A stretch of 64,000 nt of DNA from positions 682,001 to 746,000 of the forward strand of contig CBDCXE010000006.1 in the NCBI GenBank assembly GCA_965223725.1, read 5' to 3'. This document shows positions 2,032 to 37,721 of the stretch, one piece after another; the first letter of the stretch is position 1, and each line of letters begins with the position of its first letter. This DNA is from CBDCXE01 sp965223725 [NCBI: Nitrospinota bacterium] (GTDB lineage: Bacteria > Nitrospinota_A > UBA7883). The position numbers and the translations under genes were made by a program. Under the pieces are notes generated by a model, which did no database searches, was not told the DNA's origin, and saw nothing but the letters and a program-made list of their open reading frames with translations.

Positions 2032-2083
2032 AACGCCTATAATTGCTCGGGCTTCCTGCCGAATTCTTCATATATAATATCCC

Positions 2084-2139
2084 CCGGTCCGCGACGTGTG
2101 GTTCGATCTTTTGAACCTGGATAACCAGGTGGTCGCCGG
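2084..2139. other. Palindromic structured element (possible interspersed repeat or RNA)
   Basis: GCGAC at 2091-2095 pairs with GTCGC at 2132-2136. Inside, two competing hairpins share the bases ACC: GGTTC (2100-2104) with GAACC (2113-2117), and ACCTGG (2115-2120) with CCAGGT (2125-2130) across an ATAA loop. Both strands stay open for about 38 codons without a start. No second copy was found in this window. Identity unknown. Confidence 0.35.
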
Positions 2140-2779
2140 CTTGACACTATCAGGCTTTCCAGTGAACCTGGACTTGCTCAACAAGCGTCATAGTTAGCAA
2201 CCTGCATTAAAGTGTTGGCTCAAAAAATCTTCGCCACTTCGCTCGCGGCAGGGGAAATTTCACAAGAGTTAAAATAACCAGCAATATTTCCCTTATCTTG
2301 TTTGTTTTTATATCATAGTTCCTGTTTAACCTCAATGGAAAACAGATGGAGCGCGCGCCAACTGCCACTTTTTGTCCAATTTTTGTCACAACTGCTGCCG
2401 ACGATCTACAAATTTTGGTAAATAATCAGCAGAAAAATAATTGTATATTACATAAGCCTTTTAATATCATGACAGTATATTCTGGCGCCAATTTTGTATT
2501 TAAATTTAATCAGAATTGAGCATTTTATTGTGTTCAACAAAATATTACATAAATGAATAGCGATAAAAATCATGAAAGTTTCGATAAGGGACAGAGCGAG
2601 GCACTACTTTAACCCGCTCCATGTATATTGCTCACTTACGACCGTTATCAGAAAAGAGCAGGCGTTACGCGCTTCCAAAATTTATGAGAATAGAATTTAC
2701 AACAGCCGTTTACTCGGTATGTTCTAAAATTAAGTACATACTTTTGCAGTAAAAAGCCATGTGACAGTTTTGATATTGG

Positions 2780-5477: not shown

Positions 5478-7502
5478 ATGAAAGTAACCGCCGCAAAAAT
5501 GTCGATTGGCATAGTTATATTTTCGTTCGCGCTGGTATGGTTATGGGAATTCATCACCGAACCTTATTTAGGATCTATTTTACTATTTGAAACCTATGAG
5601 GAAAGCCTGGAGGATAAATGGAGAGAAGTCGCTTTTTCAGTAAGCCTGGTTTCGATAGCTATTATTTTGCCTTTGCTTTATATATTACACACAGAAAAAC
5701 TGAGAAATAAGGTAAATGATGAATTAAACCAGATTTTTGATCTCTCTCCAGACATGATCTGCTCTGGCACTGTGGATGGCTATTTTCTCCGGGTTAATTC
5801 TTCATTTAAAAAGATCCTGGGATATGATGAAAGGGAAATGATCGGAACATCATTCTTTGAATATATCCACCCAGATGATCGCGCGAAAACTATGGAATCG
5901 ATTAAAAAAACATTTACCGGCAGCGGGATCAATCTGATAGAAAACCGGTATATCTGCAAAGACGGATCCATCAAATGGATATCCTGGTCCACGCAAATTT
6001 TGCAGGAGGAGGGTCATTTTTTCGGCGTGGGTCGGGACATTACAGAATGGAAAAAGGTTGAGCGGGACCTGTTGGTAAAAAATTATGCGATAGATTCATC
6101 TATCCATGCCATTGCAATGGCTGACCCGGTGGGAACAATAACTTATGTAAATGACAAACTCCTTGAAATGTTCCGGTATGACAGCGCTGAAGAATTGATC
6201 GGTAAAAATACCGAAGTATTCAAATCGGACGAATGGGAAGAAGTGCCTATAATCAAAATATTGCGCGAGCATGGAGAGTGGAGCGGAGAGATGATATCTG
6301 CAAGAAAAGACGGCAGTTCATTCAGCGCCCAGGTTTACGCCAATACAGTGAAGGATGGCAACCAGGACATGGTTTGCATGATGGGCTCCCTTGTGGATAT
6401 TACGGATAAAAAAAGAGCGGATGAAGAGCTGATGATCGCCAAAACCAGGGCAGAGGAGGCCAGAAACGAAAAGGAACGCTATATCTCCCTGATTGCCCAG
6501 GATTTGAAAACCCCGTTTACATCGCTCGTATTACTCCTGCAATTGGTGATGACAGATAACGAAGTTAACTTGCCCGATGAGTATAAGGAGCGATTCAAGT
6601 CGTCCATCGTTGAGGTTGATCAGGCGGTGCGGCTGATCAATGAAGTGATCCACGCCAGCCAGTTTCAAACGGGGCAGATAAAGCTGAAAAAATCATTTTT
6701 TGACGGCAATGAAGTTGCTTTTCAGGTTGCCGCCAACTTTGGTCATTTGGCGGAGGAAAAAGGTATCAGGCTTGTAAACAATGTGCCCGAGCGGACCCGG
6801 TTGTATGGTGATCCAGCGCTGTATACAGAGATATTACAGAACATCATATCGAATGCTATAAAATATTCGAACAAAGGCGCCCGGGTGACAATATTCGCGT
6901 TGAATAATGAGCCTGCCACCATCGCAGTGAGTGATAATGGAACCGGTATCTCTGAATCATTTCAAAATGATATTTTCCGACATGATGTAAGAACCAGTAA
7001 AGTGGGTACCATAGGCGAGAGGGGTTCCGGGTTTGGGCTGCCTATCAGCAAAGATATTATAGAAGCCCATGGTGGCGCTCTCCGGTTCGAAACCGAAGCA
7101 GACAAAGGAACTACATTTTACATAGGATTGCCTGAAGTAACACCAGAAGTGCTTGTTGTGGACAATGACGAGGTTTCCATCAGCGCAATCAGAAAGATTT
7201 TACCAAAGTATAATATTGATGTACGGTTAACTTGGGGTGGGGCTGAAGCGCTTGCCGCTATTAAAGAGAAAAAGCCACATCTAATAATATGCGATACTAA
7301 CCTATCAGATATAGATTATGGCAAGTTTATTACAACAATAAAGAATAACCCGGAAACCGCAAATATACCGTTACTGGTGATGGATAGAGGGGAAGACTAT
7401 AATATATTTGAGAAAATAAAGCCGATTCAACAACGCGATGTAGTGAGGAAACCGCTCCAAGAAGGAAAGCTTGTGAAGCAAGTCCTTGATTATATTGTAT
7501 GA
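5478..7502 (+). CDS. PAS-PAS hybrid histidine kinase-like protein lacking the phospho-acceptor His
   Basis: 674 aa inner-membrane sensor. Two membrane helices (about 6-25 and 50-70) flank a short periplasmic loop; PAS domains lie at about 82-195 and 200-315, the dimerisation helix at about 325-400, the HATPase domain at about 435-550 and a receiver at about 553-672. The H-box reads AQDLKTPF where the family has SHELRTPL: the His is Gln341 (codon CAG, 6498-6500). The ATP site looks intact (NIISNAIKYS, DNGTGI, GSGFGLPIS). The receiver keeps its Asp606 and the late RKP lysine but has Met where Thr/Ser is usual. It may bind ATP and sense ligands without autophosphorylating on the normal residue. 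It precedes another two-component pair. Confidence 0.9.
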   Translation: MKVTAAKMSIGIVIFSFALVWLWEFITEPYLGSILLFETYEESLEDKWREVAFSVSLVSIAIILPLLYILHTEKLRNKVNDELNQIFDLSPDMICSGTVDGYFLRVNSSFKKILGYDEREMIGTSFFEYIHPDDRAKTMESIKKTFTGSGINLIENRYICKDGSIKWISWSTQILQEEGHFFGVGRDITEWKKVERDLLVKNYAIDSSIHAIAMADPVGTITYVNDKLLEMFRYDSAEELIGKNTEVFKSDEWEEVPIIKILREHGEWSGEMISARKDGSSFSAQVYANTVKDGNQDMVCMMGSLVDITDKKRADEELMIAKTRAEEARNEKERYISLIAQDLKTPFTSLVLLLQLVMTDNEVNLPDEYKERFKSSIVEVDQAVRLINEVIHASQFQTGQIKLKKSFFDGNEVAFQVAANFGHLAEEKGIRLVNNVPERTRLYGDPALYTEILQNIISNAIKYSNKGARVTIFALNNEPATIAVSDNGTGISESFQNDIFRHDVRTSKVGTIGERGSGFGLPISKDIIEAHGGALRFETEADKGTTFYIGLPEVTPEVLVVDNDEVSISAIRKILPKYNIDVRLTWGGAEALAAIKEKKPHLIICDTNLSDIDYGKFITTIKNNPETANIPLLVMDRGEDYNIFEKIKPIQQRDVVRKPLQEGKLVKQVLDYIV

Positions 7503-7619: not shown

Positions 7620-7648
7620 TTGGCATCATGGCGAGTAAAGTGTATAAT
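7620..7648 (+). promoter_or_regulatory. Sigma70-type promoter upstream of the GAF/PAS kinase operon
   Basis: TTGGCA (7620-7625), a 17-nt spacer and a perfect TATAAT (7643-7648). The expected start is near 7655, upstream of the small ORF at 7711 and of the kinase-regulator pair. Confidence 0.65.
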
Positions 7649-7710
7649 AACTTTATATTAAGAGTGATCTTAATATAGAAATTATTTCATTTGAGAGTAA
7701 AGGTTGCATC

Positions 7711-8016
7711 TTGAAACGCGCAGGCAAAATTGAAAATATGATGCAAACAACTGCAATTAGGCCGAGATATCCTTTCGCAGTGTTGAACAATTCGGACAGT
7801 TTAAAACCAAAACGTTCAAAAGCATTCAATCTAACGTCCGCTAATAAAAATAATCTTACGGTAAACTTGTTAATACTGAATCGTAAACATCCAATATTTA
7901 AAGGTATTATAAAAAATATAGTATTTATGATACAACCAGAAAGTGTATTGCATAAATATTGCATAACTTATTTAAATTTAGACTGCTCCGCATCGGTTTC
8001 AGCGATGCATTGTTAA
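7711..8016 (+). CDS. Possible small hypothetical protein
   Basis: A 101-aa ORF from a TTG start with AAAGG 7 nt upstream, lying between a good promoter and the kinase gene 51 nt downstream. The product is basic at its N-terminus (MKRAGKIENMM) and shows no domain, signal peptide or membrane helix that I recognise. AT-rich sequence gives long chance ORFs, and the opposite strand is also open here, so the call rests only on the promoter, the Shine-Dalgarno and position. Confidence 0.27.
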   Translation: MKRAGKIENMMQTTAIRPRYPFAVLNNSDSLKPKRSKAFNLTSANKNNLTVNLLILNRKHPIFKGIIKNIVFMIQPESVLHKYCITYLNLDCSASVSAMHC

Positions 8017-8067: not shown

Positions 8068-9903
8068 TTGAGTGAAGGAACAAGGGAAAAAGACCTGCTC
8101 GAACGGATAAACGTATTGCAGAACGAGCGGGACACATTTGCTCAAGCCTTGTCCAAATCAACCATGGTTTTCAATAAAAGGGTCAAAGAACTTTCAGTTA
8201 TAAAGCGTATTGGCGAATCTATGCGCTGGAACCATGAGAGGAGTAAAGTCTGCAAAGGTCTGGTCGATATAATTATTGATGAATTACCTGCTGAAAACTG
8301 CTCGCTATGGCTGGTAAACAATGAGATTGGTTCCATCGAACTTAGGGTCGCCCGTGGACGAAAAGATAGTAAAACCAAATATTTTGCGCCAAACGAGCCA
8401 GCGTTTTCTCGCCTTGCATTAGGGGAAGGCGTGGTCGGATGGGTGGCTGACAATGGCAAATCCCTGAATGTGACGGATGTTACCAAAAGTAAATACAGCG
8501 CCAAGCTAGAAGAGAAAATGGATTGCCAGATCCGTTCGATTCTATGCGCGCCAATATCCAGAGGCAGAAAAGTCACAGGCGCCATTAATTTATCACACCC
8601 GGATGTCGGGGCTTTTTCTGATGAAGATGAAAGGTTGCTGGATACAATAGCAGAGCAGGCTGCATTAGCGTTTTCCAACCTGATATTGCATGAGCGCCTT
8701 TCGGACCTGACCGAGCATCTGGAACTATTGGTCACACAACGTTCGAAGGAACTAAAATTTTCTGAAACCAAATATAGTTCATTTATGGGCAACGCAGGCT
8801 CAGCGATCATTATCGCCAATCAACAGGATGGCAAAATAGTTGAAGCGAATAATGAAGCCAGCAAACTTATGAAAATTGGCAGAGATAAAATTGTTGGTAC
8901 ACCGTTTTATGAACTGGTGGAAGATCACTGCTTCGAACAAGTTATGGACTCGTCTAACACCGGGCGCGGCAGGTTTAATGGGCTTGCCCTGAAAGGTGGC
9001 CTGCGTGATGGAGTTTTTGTTGATATCAACGCCAACGCTATTTCTACTGATGAAGGCAGCTATATATATTTGATCGTTCATGACGTTACCTATCAAACCA
9101 ACCTGGAAATAAAACTTAAAAACTATTCTGACCATTTGGAAGAGATTATAGATAAAAGGACACAGGAGCTGCAGGACGCGCATCAAGAGCTGCTGCTGGC
9201 GACCAAGCTTGCCGCCATTGGTGAGTTGGCATCATCGGTCGCCCATGAAATAAACAACCCCCTGACTGTAATCAATGGCTATGTTGAAGATATGGTGGAA
9301 TTGTTTGGCTCTGGCGATAACAAACCAGATATCGATTCGAATGATATTCTGGAAAGGTTGTCTGTTATATCCGCCCAGGCTGACAGGTGCAAGGATATAA
9401 CATGGTCCTTGCTAAATTTTGCCCGGCAAAGGGATATAAATATCGAGTTGCTCGATATAGGTGAGGTAATCTTGCAGGCTATTCACTTCGTATCACACAG
9501 AGAACGTAAAGTGGATATCAAATTCGACTATGATATCAGACCGGAAATACCACATATCAGCTCAGACATGAGCATGATCGAGCAGGTATTGGTTAATATC
9601 TACAGCAATGCTATCGACGCAATCGATTCAACTGAAGAAAATGGGAACATCAGTACCAGCGTATTTAATAGCAATGATGGCATAAACATTACAATAAAGG
9701 ATACCGGCCCAGGCATGACAGCCGCGGAAATGGAATATATATTCGATCCTTTTTACACCACGAAACCGGCATTCAAAGGAACAGGGCTCGGTCTATCTAT
9801 TTGTAAAAAGTTGATAGAACGCCTCGGAGGAACTATCACAGCCCAAAGTGTTCTTGGCGAAGGATCACAATTCATGATATTTTTACCTATAAAGATAAAC
9901 TAG
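8068..9903 (+). CDS. GAF-PAS sensor histidine kinase (NtrB-like)
   Basis: 611-aa cytoplasmic kinase with no membrane helix. The TTG start is chosen for AGAGGAG 7 nt upstream. A GAF domain (about 60-205) follows a short coiled coil; another coiled coil leads to a PAS domain (about 225-350) and the HisKA helix with VAHEINNPL, the phospho-acceptor being His393. The HATPase domain has an intact N box (NIYSNAIDAI), DTGPGM and GTGLGLSIC. The stop is 10 nt before the regulator gene, so the two form an operon and presumably a cognate pair. Unlike its upstream neighbour this kinase looks fully active. Confidence 0.93.
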   Translation: MSEGTREKDLLERINVLQNERDTFAQALSKSTMVFNKRVKELSVIKRIGESMRWNHERSKVCKGLVDIIIDELPAENCSLWLVNNEIGSIELRVARGRKDSKTKYFAPNEPAFSRLALGEGVVGWVADNGKSLNVTDVTKSKYSAKLEEKMDCQIRSILCAPISRGRKVTGAINLSHPDVGAFSDEDERLLDTIAEQAALAFSNLILHERLSDLTEHLELLVTQRSKELKFSETKYSSFMGNAGSAIIIANQQDGKIVEANNEASKLMKIGRDKIVGTPFYELVEDHCFEQVMDSSNTGRGRFNGLALKGGLRDGVFVDINANAISTDEGSYIYLIVHDVTYQTNLEIKLKNYSDHLEEIIDKRTQELQDAHQELLLATKLAAIGELASSVAHEINNPLTVINGYVEDMVELFGSGDNKPDIDSNDILERLSVISAQADRCKDITWSLLNFARQRDINIELLDIGEVILQAIHFVSHRERKVDIKFDYDIRPEIPHISSDMSMIEQVLVNIYSNAIDAIDSTEENGNISTSVFNSNDGINITIKDTGPGMTAAEMEYIFDPFYTTKPAFKGTGLGLSICKKLIERLGGTITAQSVLGEGSQFMIFLPIKIN

Positions 9904-9913
9904 ATAATTCCAA

Positions 9914-11272
9914 ATGAGTGCACGATTAACCCGTCTACTGATCGTTGATGACGATGATATGCTAAGGGAGCTTTTGTATAAAAGGTTTTCTAGCAAAGAG
10001 AGTTTTAGCGTCACTGCAAGTAAATCCGGCTCCGAAGCGCTTCAGGAAATCAACATGAATGAATTCGATGTTGGGATACTGGATATAAAAATGCCAGGTA
10101 TTTCCGGCGTAGAACTTTTAAAGGAAATCAAGGCCCTACAGCCCGATTTCGAAGCTATTATCCTGACCGGCGAGGCGGATGTCAGCTCAGCGGTGGAATC
10201 CATGAAACTGGGCGCTTATGACTATATGACAAAGCCTTGCAAACTAGACCTGCTGGAGAGAACAATCAAACGGGCCCATGAAAAGAAGAACCTGTGCGGC
10301 CAAAACATGAGGTTAAAAGAAGAGCTCCACCACAACACATTTGTGGGGAAAATTGCCGGCTCTTCGGTGGCAGCGAAAAAACTTCGTGAACAGGTGGCCG
10401 CCATGGCGGAGCTTGACGAGCCGGTTCTTATAACAGGCGAAAGTGGTTCCGGGGTAGAAACCGTCGCCCAGGGTATCCACCAGCTATCAACAAGGAAAGA
10501 AAACCCTTTCATAACGATACATTGTGGGGTGCTCTCTGAAAGCATGCTCGATGTCGCCCTGTTTGGTCAGATGGCCAACGCATATGTGGGGGCGGGGAAC
10601 CGGAAGATGGGTTTGCTAGAAACGATGGATGGCGGGACAGTCTTTTTAAACGAGATAGAGCAGCTAACCCCTTCGATGCAGGTCAAACTCTTAAACTATC
10701 TGGATACTGGAGAATTCGTTCGCTTCAGGGGCACATGCAATATCACAGCTAATACACGGTTGTTGCTAGGAGCGCCGGAAGACCTGGAGCATCTGACCAG
10801 AATTAAAAAGTTTCGGGAAAGCTTGTATTTGAAAATATCTGCGCTGGCGATAAGGGTGCCCACACTCAGGGAAAGGAAAGAGGATATACCAGAAGTCGCC
10901 GAGTGCATATTCCAACAGCATAGATCTTCTTTGACCCGAGGCAAAAGGCTATCCAAGAAAACTGCGGCAATCCTGATGAGATATGACTGGCCTTTTAATG
11001 TGAGGGAGCTGGCAAGTGTGTTGGAACGCGCCGCCAGCCTGTCGAACGGTAATACCATCCGGGCGAAAGATATCCCGCTAAGTTTTGATAAAAAACCTAA
11101 AAGCGGCGATGATCGTCACTTAATGAATTTGGCTGAAATAGAAAAAGAGCACATATTGCATGTTTTGGAAACAGTAAACGGAAATATATCCAAGGCGGCT
11201 CGTATTTTAGGAATCAGCCGCCCCAAGCTTTATCGTAAAATAGAAGGTTACAAGTCCAGCTCGCCTGACTAA
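9914..11272 (+). CDS. NtrC-family response regulator with degenerate AAA+ domain
   Basis: 452 aa: receiver (about 6-120), AAA+ sigma54-interaction-type domain (about 135-365) and a C-terminal Fis-type helix-turn-helix (ISKAARILGISRPKLYRKI). The receiver is intact (VDDDD, phosphorylatable Asp57, TKP lysine) and so is the DNA-binding helix. The ATPase core is not. Walker A is GESGSGVE with Val181 in place of Lys. The sigma54-contact loop GAFTGA is NAYVGA (222-227). Walker B has Asn246 in place of Asp. The sensor I region is changed and the second finger Arg is Lys. It therefore probably acts by DNA binding rather than by ATP-driven opening of sigma54 promoters, as known for GAFTGA-less relatives such as HupR. 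Confidence 0.92.
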   Translation: MSARLTRLLIVDDDDMLRELLYKRFSSKESFSVTASKSGSEALQEINMNEFDVGILDIKMPGISGVELLKEIKALQPDFEAIILTGEADVSSAVESMKLGAYDYMTKPCKLDLLERTIKRAHEKKNLCGQNMRLKEELHHNTFVGKIAGSSVAAKKLREQVAAMAELDEPVLITGESGSGVETVAQGIHQLSTRKENPFITIHCGVLSESMLDVALFGQMANAYVGAGNRKMGLLETMDGGTVFLNEIEQLTPSMQVKLLNYLDTGEFVRFRGTCNITANTRLLLGAPEDLEHLTRIKKFRESLYLKISALAIRVPTLRERKEDIPEVAECIFQQHRSSLTRGKRLSKKTAAILMRYDWPFNVRELASVLERAASLSNGNTIRAKDIPLSFDKKPKSGDDRHLMNLAEIEKEHILHVLETVNGNISKAARILGISRPKLYRKIEGYKSSSPD

Positions 11273-11429: not shown

Positions 11430-11457
11430 TTGACATAACGTAATGAATTGTTATATT
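11430..11457 (+). promoter_or_regulatory. Sigma70-type promoter for the DUF2802-like gene
   Basis: Consensus TTGACA (11430-11435), a 16-nt spacer and TATATT (11452-11457). The start would be near 11465. Confidence 0.6.
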
Positions 11458-11738: not shown

Positions 11739-12290
11739 TTGTCACCTGAATTGTTTGGAGCGCAACTTGGGATGCTGGATACCGATGCATGGATACTCAT
11801 CCAGATAATCGTAGACATTATCTTGTTTTCAATTCTCGCCTTGTATATATTGCGTAGCTGGAAAGAAGATGAGATTGTGGAAGAGGAAGAAGAGCCACCG
11901 CCCGCTCCCCCGGTGAACCCGACAAATAATGGATCAAAAGAGGCGATGGATGTGACTAAACTGGAGTCTATGCTGGTTGAGTTTTCAGTGTTACTTGCGC
12001 ATGCCGAAGAGGCGGCGGAGAGAATAGAAAACGCCAGCAAGTTCGCGTCTGACACTGTTCACGATGAGGCTGGTAAAACACAACCGATAACCAACATTAA
12101 TTATGTTCTGGAAAATAAAATCAAGCGGCAAGCCTCCGCGGCGATAGGTAAAAATGGCGCAAAAGATGGAAAATACGCTTATACCGATGCGGCGAAGCTG
12201 ATATGGGCGGGGATGAAAGATGAAGAAATCGCCCGGATCGTCGGATTACCAATCATTGAAGTTAAACTTATAAGAAACATGGCCGAATGA
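11739..12290 (+). CDS. Membrane-anchored DUF2802-like protein
   Basis: 183 aa. A membrane helix (about 17-41, WILIQIIVDIILFSILALYI) is followed by an acidic/proline linker (EEEEEPPPAPP), a helical segment, and a C-terminal helix-turn-helix-like motif (AAKLIWAGMKDEEIARIVGL, then PIIEVKLI) of the kind found at the end of DUF2802 proteins. Start: the TTG fits the promoter; an ATG at 11772 would give MLDTDAW and keep the membrane helix. Function unknown. It stands alone and converges on the TAXI gene. Confidence 0.7.
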   Translation: MSPELFGAQLGMLDTDAWILIQIIVDIILFSILALYILRSWKEDEIVEEEEEPPPAPPVNPTNNGSKEAMDVTKLESMLVEFSVLLAHAEEAAERIENASKFASDTVHDEAGKTQPITNINYVLENKIKRQASAAIGKNGAKDGKYAYTDAAKLIWAGMKDEEIARIVGLPIIEVKLIRNMAE

Positions 12291-16119: not shown

Positions 16120-17495
16120 TATGGCAGAGTGGCGCGCCATTTTTCCATTTCATTGGCGGCTCGTTTCATCGTGACGGCTCGTCGCTCTTTTTTATTTTTG
16201 ATCTTGGTGTCCAGCGGCGGGAATAGGGAGAAGTTGATATTCGTAGGCTGAAAATTGTCTGCCCTGCCACTGTCGGTTATATAGTTCAGAAGAGCGCCTA
16301 AAGTTGTTGTCGCTGGAGGAGGGGCTGGTTTCATTCCCAAAAATTCTTGCGCTGTAAAAATGCCCGCCAGCAGGCCAGTGGCGGCAGACTCCACATAACC
16401 TTCTACCCCGGCCAGCACACCGACCAGCCGAATATTGGCGTCCGCTTTCAGCGTCATGTCATGGTCGAGCGCCACTGGTGAGTTTATATAAGTGTTTCTA
16501 TGCAGTGAACCGAACCGGAGAAACTCTACGTTAGCCAGCCCGGGGATAGTACGGAAGACCCGCTGTTGCTCCTGATATTTAAGCTTAGTCTGAAACCCTA
16601 CAAGGCTGTATGACTGTCGGTCGGCTGTTTCCTGGCGAAGTTGAACAACCGCATGCGGCCTTTTTCCGGTGTGTGGATCGGTAAGCCCCACCGGTTTCAT
16701 CGGGCCAAAGGCCAGGCTTTCCCTGCCCCTGGAGGCGATCTCCTCGATCGGCAAGCATGATTCAAAATAGTAACGTTTCTCGAACTTTTTGAACTCAACA
16801 GCTTCCGCGTTTAGCAAATCATCCACAAACGCCTCATACTCACCCCGATTCATCGGCAGGTTCAGGTAGTCCCCATCGCCCGGATCGCCATACCTGTCTT
16901 GATGAAACGCGATGGAGTTGTCGATGGAGCCAGCGTCCAGCACCGGGGCGATGGCGTCATAAAAGTAGAGGTGATCACTGCCGGTCAGCGCGCTCAATGA
17001 TTGCGCCATCGCGTCGGAGGTCAACGGCCCGGTGGCCATTATGACTTTATCGTAACCTTGAGGGATGGAGGGCGCCTCTTGCATTATAATGTTGATTGCT
17101 GGTTCCTGTTCGATCGCCTCGGTGACAGCTTGCCCGAACGCTTCGCGGTCAACCGCCAGCGCCTTGCCCGCTGGGACACGATGCTTCTGCGCCGCTGCAA
17201 TTATCAACGAATCGAGCGAGCGCATGTCTTGTTTCAGCCTGCCGGTGGGCGATTCCGGTGATTCAGATTTTAATGAATTGGAGCAAACAAGCTCTGCCAG
17301 GTGGCCCGTTTTATGCGCCTCTGTTTGCTGCTGCGGACGCATCTCATAAAGGTCTATTTTGGCTTTGCCTTTTAACCGTTTGGCCAACTGCCATGCCGCT
17401 TCCGACCCGGCCAATCCGCCGCCAACAACCGCTACTTTAAACAGTTTGCCCTCAGCGTTCAGGACGATTCCACCATCTCTTTTTTGTAGTTGCAC
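16119..17495 (-). CDS. trmFO: tRNA (uracil-54-C5)-methyltransferase, folate/FAD-dependent
   Basis: Makes m5U54 (T) in tRNA using methylenetetrahydrofolate and FAD. The FAD Rossmann motif is VAVVGGGLAGSEAAWQLAK; family blocks follow, such as YEMRPQQQTEAHKT, LVCSNSLKSESPES, AVDREAF and GVEGYVESAATGL. The start is uncertain. The frame is open to 17573, inside topA; in-frame GTG codons lie at 17510 and 17495, and a CTG at 17462 overlaps the topA stop as CTGA and would give the most family-like N-terminus. Conserved sequence begins only at about 17444. It is coupled to topA upstream and xseA downstream. Confidence 0.93.
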   Translation of the reverse strand: MQLQKRDGGIVLNAEGKLFKVAVVGGGLAGSEAAWQLAKRLKGKAKIDLYEMRPQQQTEAHKTGHLAELVCSNSLKSESPESPTGRLKQDMRSLDSLIIAAAQKHRVPAGKALAVDREAFGQAVTEAIEQEPAINIIMQEAPSIPQGYDKVIMATGPLTSDAMAQSLSALTGSDHLYFYDAIAPVLDAGSIDNSIAFHQDRYGDPGDGDYLNLPMNRGEYEAFVDDLLNAEAVEFKKFEKRYYFESCLPIEEIASRGRESLAFGPMKPVGLTDPHTGKRPHAVVQLRQETADRQSYSLVGFQTKLKYQEQQRVFRTIPGLANVEFLRFGSLHRNTYINSPVALDHDMTLKADANIRLVGVLAGVEGYVESAATGLLAGIFTAQEFLGMKPAPPPATTTLGALLNYITDSGRADNFQPTNINFSLFPPLDTKIKNKKERRAVTMKRAANEMEKWRATLP

Positions 17496-35813: not shown

Positions 35814-35933
35814 ATTCTACCTTTCTGGAATATTGTCATCATATAAATCGTCAAAACATAAACTGCTGTGTGCGCATGTTATTATACTAGCCACTTTATA
35901 TTCGAAGTCTATATCAATATCGAAAGTTTTTAT

Positions 35934-37721
35934 ATGTATATGAGATTTTTGGCCATGGCCCTGGCGGCTACACTCCTTGCCGGGGTGTCCGCCGCCCAGC
36001 TTACGCCCAGCTCCGAGAAGGTCACGGCAAAGGTAGCGCAAGACCGGGATGGCTATCGCCCGGGCGAATCGTTCCGCCTGCTGTTCGGGCTGAGTTTCGA
36101 ACCGGGCTGGCACGGCCAATCGAACAAACCTTCGCTGGAGAGCCTGATACCCACCACCCTGGACATAGCGGCGGAGGGGGATGCGACATTCGGGCGGGTC
36201 TCATATCCGGAGGGCACGATGGAAAGGTTCGAGTTCTCAGAAACCGCGCTGTCCACCTATAAGGATACGGTATACATCGGCGTCAGCGGCGCCATGCAGA
36301 CCGACGCCGCGCCGGGCGAATATCCGGCGGAAGCTAACATCACCGTGCAGGCGTGCGACGACACGTCGTGCCTGCCGCCATCGAACATAGCGATACCGTT
36401 TGTCATCAATGTGGTCACCGCCGACACAGAAATAACCATGCTCCGCGCCGATCTGTTCGCCGCAAACGAAGCGCTGTTCGGCGGTGCGGAGCAACCAGAC
36501 GATGGGTCGAGTATCGCCGACTACCTGACAAGCAACGGGCTGCTGCTGACGATGGTTTTCATCTTCGTCGGCGGGCTGGCGCTCAACCTCACTCCCTGCG
36601 TCTATCCGCTTATCCCGATCACCGTTTCATATTTCGGCGGTCAGGGCAAATCGAGCCAGACCAAGTTAATTGCCAACGCCATCTTCTATCTGCTGGGCAT
36701 GGCGGTGATGTATTCCACCCTTGGTGTGGTGGCGGCAATGACCGCCAGCCTGTTCGGCGCGCTGTTGCAGCATTGGGCGATGATCCTGTTCATCGCGGTG
36801 GTGTTGACGGCGCTGGCGTTGTCGATGTTTGGGTTATACGAAATAGCGCCCCCAGCTATTTTGACGGAGATCGGCGGCAAGAACCGCGAAGGCCTGGCGG
36901 GGGCGTTCATGATGGGCCTGACGGTCGGGATCATCGCTGCGCCATGCATCGGGCCGTTCGTCATCGGCCTGCTCACCTTCGTGGGTGAGACCGGCGACCC
37001 GGTCCTGGGGTCGGCCATGTTTTTCATGCTGGCGTTGGGGCTCGGCGCCCCGTTTGTTGTCCTGGCGATTTTTTCCGGGTCGATCTCATCGTTGCCCCGG
37101 TCGGGCGAATGGATGATCTGGGTGCGGCAGTTTTTCGGTTTTGTGCTGCTGGGGATGACCATTTATTTTCTCGAGCCGCTGATTCCGGAGCCCCTATACC
37201 TGCCGCTGTTCGGCGCGTTTATCATCGGCGCGGGGCTCTGCCTCGGCTGGATATCGAGCGCTGGCGTGGACGGTCATATTTTCAAAATGTTTCGCTGGGC
37301 CGTCGGGCTGGCGGCGGTGGCGCTTGGTCTGTTTATGATCACATCATCGCAATCGGCCGAGGGGCCAGCCATGAAATGGGAGAATGTAACGGCCAAGGCG
37401 TTGGAAGTGGCGAAAGCAGAGGGAAAACCTGTGGTGATTGATTTCACCGCCGACTGGTGCCTTCCATGCAAGGAGCTGGAACATTTTACTTTCAGCGACG
37501 AACAGGTGATCGAGACGGCCAAAAGTATCAAAGCCCTGAAAGCTGACCTGACAAAATCGGGCAACACAGCGGCGGAAGCCATCAAGGAACAGTTCAACGT
37601 CTCCGGCGTCCCGACCATAGTCTTTATCGACTCCAGCGGCGCAGAACGTACAGACCTGCGGTTCGTCGGGTTTATCTCAGCCGAAAAGTTCAACGAAAAG
37701 TTGCAAAGCCTCCTCAACTAG
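35934..37721 (+). CDS. dsbD: Thiol:disulfide interchange protein DsbD
   Basis: About 595 aa; carries electrons from cytoplasmic thioredoxin to the periplasm. A signal peptide (MYMRFLAMALAATLLAGVSA) leads to the alpha domain with redox pair C141/C146 (QACDDTSC). The eight-helix beta domain has its pair at C222 (LTPCVYPLIP) and C338 (APCIGPFV). The gamma thioredoxin domain has C509-xx-C512 (ADWCLPCKEL). All six electron-relay cysteines are present. Two in-frame ATGs (35934, 35940) are possible starts; the upstream ORF extension is not signal-like. Its codons are visibly GC-richer than those of the neighbours, possibly a sign of separate origin. Confidence 0.95.
   Translation: MYMRFLAMALAATLLAGVSAAQLTPSSEKVTAKVAQDRDGYRPGESFRLLFGLSFEPGWHGQSNKPSLESLIPTTLDIAAEGDATFGRVSYPEGTMERFEFSETALSTYKDTVYIGVSGAMQTDAAPGEYPAEANITVQACDDTSCLPPSNIAIPFVINVVTADTEITMLRADLFAANEALFGGAEQPDDGSSIADYLTSNGLLLTMVFIFVGGLALNLTPCVYPLIPITVSYFGGQGKSSQTKLIANAIFYLLGMAVMYSTLGVVAAMTASLFGALLQHWAMILFIAVVLTALALSMFGLYEIAPPAILTEIGGKNREGLAGAFMMGLTVGIIAAPCIGPFVIGLLTFVGETGDPVLGSAMFFMLALGLGAPFVVLAIFSGSISSLPRSGEWMIWVRQFFGFVLLGMTIYFLEPLIPEPLYLPLFGAFIIGAGLCLGWISSAGVDGHIFKMFRWAVGLAAVALGLFMITSSQSAEGPAMKWENVTAKALEVAKAEGKPVVIDFTADWCLPCKELEHFTFSDEQVIETAKSIKALKADLTKSGNTAAEAIKEQFNVSGVPTIVFIDSSGAERTDLRFVGFISAEKFNEKLQSLLN

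What the first reader, a model, noticed from the sequence alone, without database searches (positions are those of the whole stretch)
9914..11272. NtrC-type regulator whose AAA+ engine is eroded while receiver and DNA-binding domains are intact
Seen: Walker A Lys is Val181, GAFTGA is NAYVGA (222-227), Walker B Asp is Asn246, the sensor I region is rewritten and one finger Arg is Lys. Asp57 and the Fis helix are preserved. Known: HupR and Rhodobacter capsulatus NtrC lack GAFTGA and act at sigma70 promoters, but they are not this thoroughly changed in the ATP site. Inference: a phosphorylation-controlled DNA-binding switch that no longer hydrolyses ATP or touches sigma54.
Basis: partly seen in the sequence, partly recalled or inferred. 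Interest (0 to 1): 0.6.

Follow-up and report, generated by a model that had tools for sequence, protein, structure and literature searches.

The report
NtrC-type regulator with dead engine
A bacterial switch protein of a well-known class has kept its signal-receiving and DNA-gripping parts but lost the parts of its motor that would burn ATP, so it probably turns genes on or off simply by binding DNA.

Summary
The ORF at 9914-11272 (452 aa) is a receiver / AAA+ / Fis-HTH response regulator 10 bases downstream of an intact GAF-PAS histidine kinase (8068-9903). Walker A Lys is Val181, GAFTGA is NAYVGA, Walker B Asp is Asn246, sensor I Thr-Asn is Ala-Pro, and the second finger Arg is Lys307; Asp303 is Ser and the sensor II Gly is Phe361.

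Of 161 family hits in six genomes of one reachable phylum I compared 90: all 90 keep Walker A Lys and Walker B Asp. AAA+/receiver distance is 1.04 here against 0.40-0.65 in 25 full-length relatives, while receiver and HTH lie in the normal range. This is loss of constraint confined to the AAA+ part, not decay of the whole gene.

Most likely it is a phosphorylation-controlled DNA-binding regulator without ATPase or sigma54 function. A sigma70-like promoter and a perfect 24-bp dyad before the operon are a weak lead to autorepression.

No orthologue was found in what could be searched, so conservation of the changes is untested. GAFTGA-less relatives at sigma70 promoters are known; loss of the ATP site itself makes this a new variant of a known kind.

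The parts
9914..11272 (+). response regulator, 452 aa: receiver, degenerate AAA+, Fis-type HTH
9938..10267 (+). receiver domain (residues 9-118), Asp13, Asp57, Thr85, Lys107 kept
   Evidence: Pfam; columns; normal divergence
10436..10459 (+). Walker A GESGSGVE (175-182): glycines kept, Lys replaced by Val181 (codon GTA, at least 2 base changes from Lys)
10577..10594 (+). sigma54 loop 1: NAYVGA in place of GAFTGA, no deletion
10637..10654 (+). Walker B TVFLNE: Asp to Asn246, Glu247 kept
10763..10777 (+). sensor I region (284-288), Thr-Asn to Ala-Pro
10814..10834 (+). finger region RESLYLK (301-307): Arg301 kept, Asp to Ser303, Arg to Lys307
11129..11245 (+). Fis-type helix-turn-helix (HTH_8, residues 406-444)
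   Evidence: Pfam
8068..9903 (+). partner histidine kinase, GAF-PAS-HisKA-HATPase, TTG start; His393 and ATP-binding boxes intact
   Evidence: 10 bases lie between its stop codon and the regulator's start
7620..7648 (+). sigma70-like promoter TTGGCA-17-TATAAT upstream of the kinase/regulator pair (candidate)
   Evidence: consensus scan, 11 of 12 bases (19 promoter-like sites in that 5-kb stretch against 11.4 +/- 3.9 in shuffles)
7654..7677 (.). perfect dyad TATATTAAGA-4-TCTTAATATA over the expected transcription start (candidate operator, weak)
   Evidence: the only dyad with perfect 10-base arms and 3-8 base spacer in the window; 9 of 500 shuffles of the region have one

Best explanation
The gene encodes a working two-component response regulator in which phosphorylation of Asp57 by the adjacent kinase controls dimer or higher assembly and DNA binding through the Fis-type HTH. 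The AAA+ domain is kept as a folded connector or oligomerisation scaffold and no longer hydrolyses ATP or remodels sigma54-polymerase. It would then act like a conventional regulator at sigma70-type promoters, as repressor or contact activator, probably including its own promoter. Shown by sequence: intact receiver, HTH and partner kinase; loss of the ATP-site and sigma54-contact residues; extra divergence confined to the AAA+ domain. Inferred: absence of ATPase, the sigma70 mode, and autoregulation.
For: The ATP site is changed at several positions: Lys181, Asp246, Thr287/Asn288, Asp303, Arg307. Loop positions that contact sigma54 are changed too. Mean tree distance AAA/receiver is 1.04 against 0.40-0.65 in 25 relatives, and 1.10 against 0.49-0.90 with the catalytic columns removed. 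Identity of the AAA+ to relatives is 35.9% against 51.5-65.6% among them, while receiver (36.3% against 32.0-51.5%) and HTH (36.4% against 24.0-48.1%) are ordinary. The frame is open over 452 codons. Several changes need two or three base changes (K181V, G222N, T225V, N288P), which argues for old divergence. The kinase is intact and adjacent. A sigma70-like promoter with a dyad at the expected start site precedes the operon; sigma54-type sites are not enriched in the window (61 against 68.9 expected). Precedent, from passages of PMC10274813: GAFTGA-less NtrC proteins act at sigma70 promoters, and VpsR (printed 'VspR') works without ATP.
Against: No orthologue, so purifying selection on the changed protein is not measured. 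Codon fit to the neighbours is positive but the joint lowest of 17 window genes (0.024 per codon, equal to the hybrid kinase), so it neither supports nor refutes much. Glu247, Arg301, Arg364 and all P-loop glycines remain, so nucleotide binding is possible. Losses at near-invariant columns are not significantly concentrated in the ATP/loop/finger set (8 of 17 against 7 of 32, Fisher p = 0.10): the whole AAA+ domain is relaxed. The lid is just below the range of relatives (35.3% against 35.8-57.1%). The dyad and promoter are pattern matches only; 19 promoter-like sites were found in the stretch where shuffles give 11.4.
Confidence: 0.62

Rival explanations
1. Recent or ongoing decay: a formerly normal sigma54 activator losing function in this lineage, AAA+ domain first.
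For: No orthologue shows the changes conserved. Relaxation spreads over the whole AAA+ domain, not just the active site.
Against: Open frame of 452 codons. Receiver key residues are complete and receiver and HTH divergence is ordinary. Several replacements need 2-3 base changes. 34 of 49 near-invariant AAA+ columns remain.
Confidence: 0.18
2. Nucleotide-binding but non-hydrolysing regulator: ATP or another nucleotide is bound as a structural ligand and tunes assembly, as reported for R. capsulatus NtrC.
For: P-loop glycines, Glu247, Arg301 and Arg364 are kept. Passage in PMC10274813: ATP binding rather than hydrolysis is essential in R. capsulatus NtrC.
Against: Walker A Lys, present in 90 of 90 relatives compared, is Val; Walker B Asp and sensor I are changed too.
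Confidence: 0.12
3. Poison subunit: it joins rings of intact family members or competes for their sites and damps sigma54 transcription.
For: AAA+ and lid are still recognisable, and R301 and R364 are kept.
Against: A six-frame motif scan found no intact family member in the window, and the genome is not held. It has its own adjacent kinase and its own HTH.
Confidence: 0.06
4. It still activates sigma54 polymerase through an unusual loop and ATP site.
For: The loop has full length and ends in GA, and Tyr at the Phe position occurs in 3 of 90 relatives. Caulobacter NtrC without GAFTGA can promote some sigma54 genes when its HTH is mutated (passages of PMC12421884).
Against: ATP-site Lys, Asp and second finger Arg are all changed. 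Passages of PMC4132715 report that PspF function depends on loop integrity, tested with F85Y and T86A; here both positions differ.
Confidence: 0.02

Closest known systems
NtrC-family response regulators (group I bacterial enhancer binding proteins; NtrC1 1ny5/4l4u, ZraR, AtoC)
   Same: Receiver-AAA+-lid-Fis HTH order; best solved match NtrC1 (E 1.6e-82; Foldseek 1ny5 E 4.4e-31). The adjacent kinase scores best with the AtoS and ZraS models, below their cut-offs.
   Different: Lacks Walker A Lys, Walker B Asp, sensor I Thr/Asn, second finger Arg and GAFTGA.
sigma70-acting NtrC-type proteins without a normal GAFTGA: R. capsulatus NtrC and HupR, Caulobacter NtrC, TyrR, DhaR (passages of PMC10274813 and PMC3162934)
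   Same: Loss of the sigma54 contact with a working sensor part and HTH.
   Different: R. capsulatus and Caulobacter NtrC have a deletion in the loop; the first needs ATP binding, the second needs its Walker Lys and Asp (as stated in PMC10274813). Here the loop has full length and the ATP site itself is changed. ATP sites of HupR, TyrR and DhaR were not compared here.
VpsR of Vibrio cholerae
   Same: Receiver-AAA+-HTH type protein without GAFTGA; stated to work without ATP (printed 'VspR'); Foldseek rank 12 (7v2b).
   Different: Only 26% identical in the Foldseek alignment. Its Walker residues were not compared here.
PEP-CTERM response regulator model TIGR02915
   Same: Best NCBIfam score, 303.8 bits.
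   Different: Well below that model's cut-off of 502.6 bits; not a member.

Membership tests
NtrC-family response regulator by descent | receiver + Sigma54_activat + Fis-type HTH in one chain | tested here: met
   Pfam, each above its cut-off
NtrC-family response regulator by descent | phosphoacceptor Asp with acidic pocket, T/S, K | tested here: met
   Asp13, Asp57, Thr85, Lys107; these columns are D, D, T/S, K in all 25 relatives
functional sigma54 activator (bEBP) | Walker A GxxxxGK | tested here: not met
   Val181; Lys in 90 of 90 relatives compared
functional sigma54 activator (bEBP) | Walker B hhhhDE | tested here: not met
   Asn246-Glu247; Asp in 90 of 90
functional sigma54 activator (bEBP) | GAFTGA loop | tested here: not met
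   NAYVGA
functional sigma54 activator (bEBP) | two finger Arg | tested here: not met
   Arg301 kept, second is Lys307
functional sigma54 activator (bEBP) | ATPase and open-complex formation in vitro | not testable with these tools
   needs purified protein
sigma70-acting, GAFTGA-less NtrC-type regulator | action at sigma70 promoters | tested here: inconclusive
   only a promoter-like match and a dyad upstream
sigma70-acting, GAFTGA-less NtrC-type regulator | changed loop conserved among orthologues | tested here: inconclusive
   no orthologue found in what could be searched
PEP-CTERM response regulator (TIGR02915) | score over curated cut-off | tested here: not met
   303.8 against 502.6 bits

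The most novel reading that the evidence does not exclude
A lineage has turned an ATP-driven sigma54 activator into an ATP-free phospho-switch: the AAA+ domain became a pseudo-ATPase scaffold, maintained under different constraints, that transmits receiver phosphorylation to the HTH at sigma70 promoters, with autorepression through the 24-bp dyad at 7654-7677.
Probability: 0.35. Interest if true: 0.55.

Novelty: new variant of a known kind. Interest (0 to 1): 0.42.

Why it matters
Bacterial enhancer binding proteins are the textbook case of transcription driven by ATP. A member that keeps signal input and DNA output while the motor is dismantled would be a natural separation-of-function experiment on what the AAA+ domain does apart from hydrolysis. 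It would also warn against annotating every Sigma54_activat protein as a sigma54 activator.

Tried and rejected
Orthologue hunting failed. Genome contigs gave 2 relatives at 34-35%; that scan needs an exact 8-residue match, so orthologues below roughly 70-75% identity could be missed. Viral contigs gave none. Plasmids: best listed place 37.4%, all 4719 matching records under 60%, 15 listed. In one phylum 8 of 282 genomes passed E 1e-90, at 37-39%. Pseudomonadota: 0 of 398 at E 1e-85. A two-genome class: 0 of 2 at E 1e-88. The kinase: 0 of 235 at E 1e-70. Searches scored only 4-5 candidates per genome in the rows shown, so a divergent orthologue could be missed.

Placement by TopA: at most 56% in one class (48 of 289 genomes passing E 1e-250), 54% to the only genome of another class, at most 51% in Pseudomonadota (34 of 299 passing E 1e-220).

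Rejected: enrichment of sigma54 promoters in the window (61 matches against 68.9 expected); membership of TIGR02915; TTGCATAA repeats as operator, because copies also occur elsewhere in the window. No second copy of the longer dyad pattern at up to 3 mismatches; the shorter core gave one further match with 2 mismatches, at 16579-16594, where 3.15 matches are expected by chance. The Fisher test of active-site concentration was not significant. Codon fit was uninformative. The fold prediction had three sequences and modest confidence (mean pLDDT 65.3, pTM 0.41); I use it only for overall fold. One search read several relatives on the wrong strand and was replaced, where 25 of 39 candidate relatives were full-length and 14 were dropped. 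Nine of the 39 candidates (L001, L011-L018), all among the 25 kept, had been found by similarity to the window protein itself, which if anything raises its identities. The last printed line is meaningless.

Literature: searches. The lists of 45 (12 of 47), 46 (12 of 222), 63 (12 of 23) and 75 (10 of 11) were cut. I saw no title or abstract start about an NtrC-type regulator without Walker A Lys; that covers only this open-licence library and these terms. Papers seen as passages only: PMC10714721, PMC10274813, PMC3162934, PMC6375630, PMC6211767, PMC12421884, PMC4132715. All others were listings.

Full report
What is there. The ORF at 9914-11272 (+) encodes 452 residues with receiver, Sigma54_activat, lid and Fis-type HTH domains, each above its Pfam cut-off. 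It starts 10 bases after a 611-residue GAF-PAS-HisKA-HATPase kinase (8068-9903) whose phosphoacceptor His393, N-box and G-boxes are intact. The pair reads as a two-component operon. The best solved relative is NtrC1 (E 1.6e-82).

Observation check. Further changes are D303S, N288P, G361F and His at 203. As a yardstick I searched PF00158 in six genomes of one reachable phylum (161 hits) and compared 90 of the 161: the 30 returned as loci and the 60 lowest-scoring listed rows. Walker A Lys and Walker B Asp are present in 90 of 90 each, and the second finger Arg in 89 of 89 with one truncated. Of 49 columns at least 90% conserved, the window protein loses 15, against a median of 1 and a maximum of 6 in the references. 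Its PF00158 score of 149.4 bits is below every listed hit (lowest listed 190.1; the last hits were not listed).

Is the gene alive? Among 25 full-length relatives (of 39 candidates) the AAA+ domain is far better conserved than the receiver: a protein's mean identity to the others is 12 to 28 points higher. In the window protein the difference is -0.3. Tree distances agree: AAA/receiver ratio 1.04 against 0.40-0.65, and 1.10 against 0.49-0.90 after removing catalytic columns. Receiver and HTH lie within the range of the relatives. This pattern fits release of constraint on the AAA+ domain alone, which whole-gene decay would not give. Several substitutions need two or three base changes, so the change is not fresh. 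Against this, the losses are not significantly concentrated at ATP, loop and finger columns (8 of 17 against 7 of 32, p = 0.10): the whole AAA+ domain is relaxed, which also fits a domain on its way out. Codon fit to neighbouring genes is positive but joint lowest of 17 genes, which decides nothing.

What it probably does. With the receiver, HTH and kinase intact, phosphorylation should still control assembly and DNA binding. Without Walker A Lys, Walker B Asp, sensor I and the second finger, ATP hydrolysis is very unlikely. Without GAFTGA, sigma54 contact is very unlikely: passages of PMC4132715 report that PspF function depends on loop integrity, tested with F85Y and T86A, and the equivalents of both differ here (Tyr at the first is also seen in 3 of 90 relatives). 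That paper also discusses E108 (here Glu247, kept), its switch partner N64 (here probably His203), D164 (here Ser303) and R162/R168 (here Arg301/Lys307). The residue matching is mine, by motif.

How it may act on promoters. Passages of PMC10274813 state that some GAFTGA-less NtrC proteins act at sigma70 promoters, that R. capsulatus NtrC needs ATP binding but not hydrolysis, that Caulobacter NtrC needs its Walker Lys and Asp, and that VpsR (printed 'VspR') works without ATP. Passages of PMC3162934 count 4850 true and 121 putative sigma54 activators and around 110 homologues with deviations in GAFTGA, and name TyrR, DhaR and HupR as sigma70-dependent. Upstream of the operon lies a sigma70-like promoter, TTGGCA-17-TATAAT at 7620-7648 (19 such sites in that 5-kb stretch against 11.4 in shuffles). 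Over its expected start site lies a perfect dyad, TATATTAAGA-4-TCTTAATATA at 7654-7677. It is the only dyad with perfect 10-base arms and a 3-8 base spacer in 64 kb, and 9 of 500 shuffles of the 565-base region contain one. It is a reasonable candidate operator for autorepression, no more. No convincing second copy was found.

What is missing. No genome is held for the window and its lineage could not be identified: TopA is at most 56% identical in one class, 54% to the one genome of another and at most 51% in Pseudomonadota. No orthologue of the regulator was found, nor a close kinase relative.

Structure. AlphaFold2 with a three-sequence alignment gives mean pLDDT 65.3 and pTM 0.41. Ten-residue blocks are 72-88 in the receiver and 55-86 over most of the AAA+ core, 43 at the loop (221-230), and poor in the lid. 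Foldseek returns NtrC1, NtrX, NtrC4, LuxO, VpsR and FleQ first. This supports a retained overall fold only.

Verdict. A real and unusually thorough loss of the AAA+ active site in an otherwise intact response regulator: a new variant of a known kind, of moderate interest until relatives show that the changed form is maintained.

Noticed in passing
5478-7502 (+), codon 341 at 6498-6500: The hybrid kinase upstream of the operon has Gln (CAG) where the H-box phosphoacceptor His should be (SLIAQDLKTP), while its N-box, G-boxes and a C-terminal receiver Asp remain: a second signalling protein with a lost catalytic residue next to the degenerate regulator.
   Followed up: partly
2077-2257 (-): 6S RNA (RF00013, 84.8 bits against gathering 46.4).
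   Followed up: no
7947-7966 (+): Two tandem ATTGCATAA repeats 11 bases apart in the long leader before the kinase gene.
   Followed up: partly
11430-11457 (+): Promoter-like match TTGACA-16-TATATT with TG (11 of 12), ahead of the small gene at 11739-12290, which matches DUF2802 only below its cut-off (20.1 against 33.5 bits).
   Followed up: no
35868-37721 (+): DsbD-like protein matching the selenoprotein TsoB model (494.8 bits, below its cut-off of 805).
   Followed up: no
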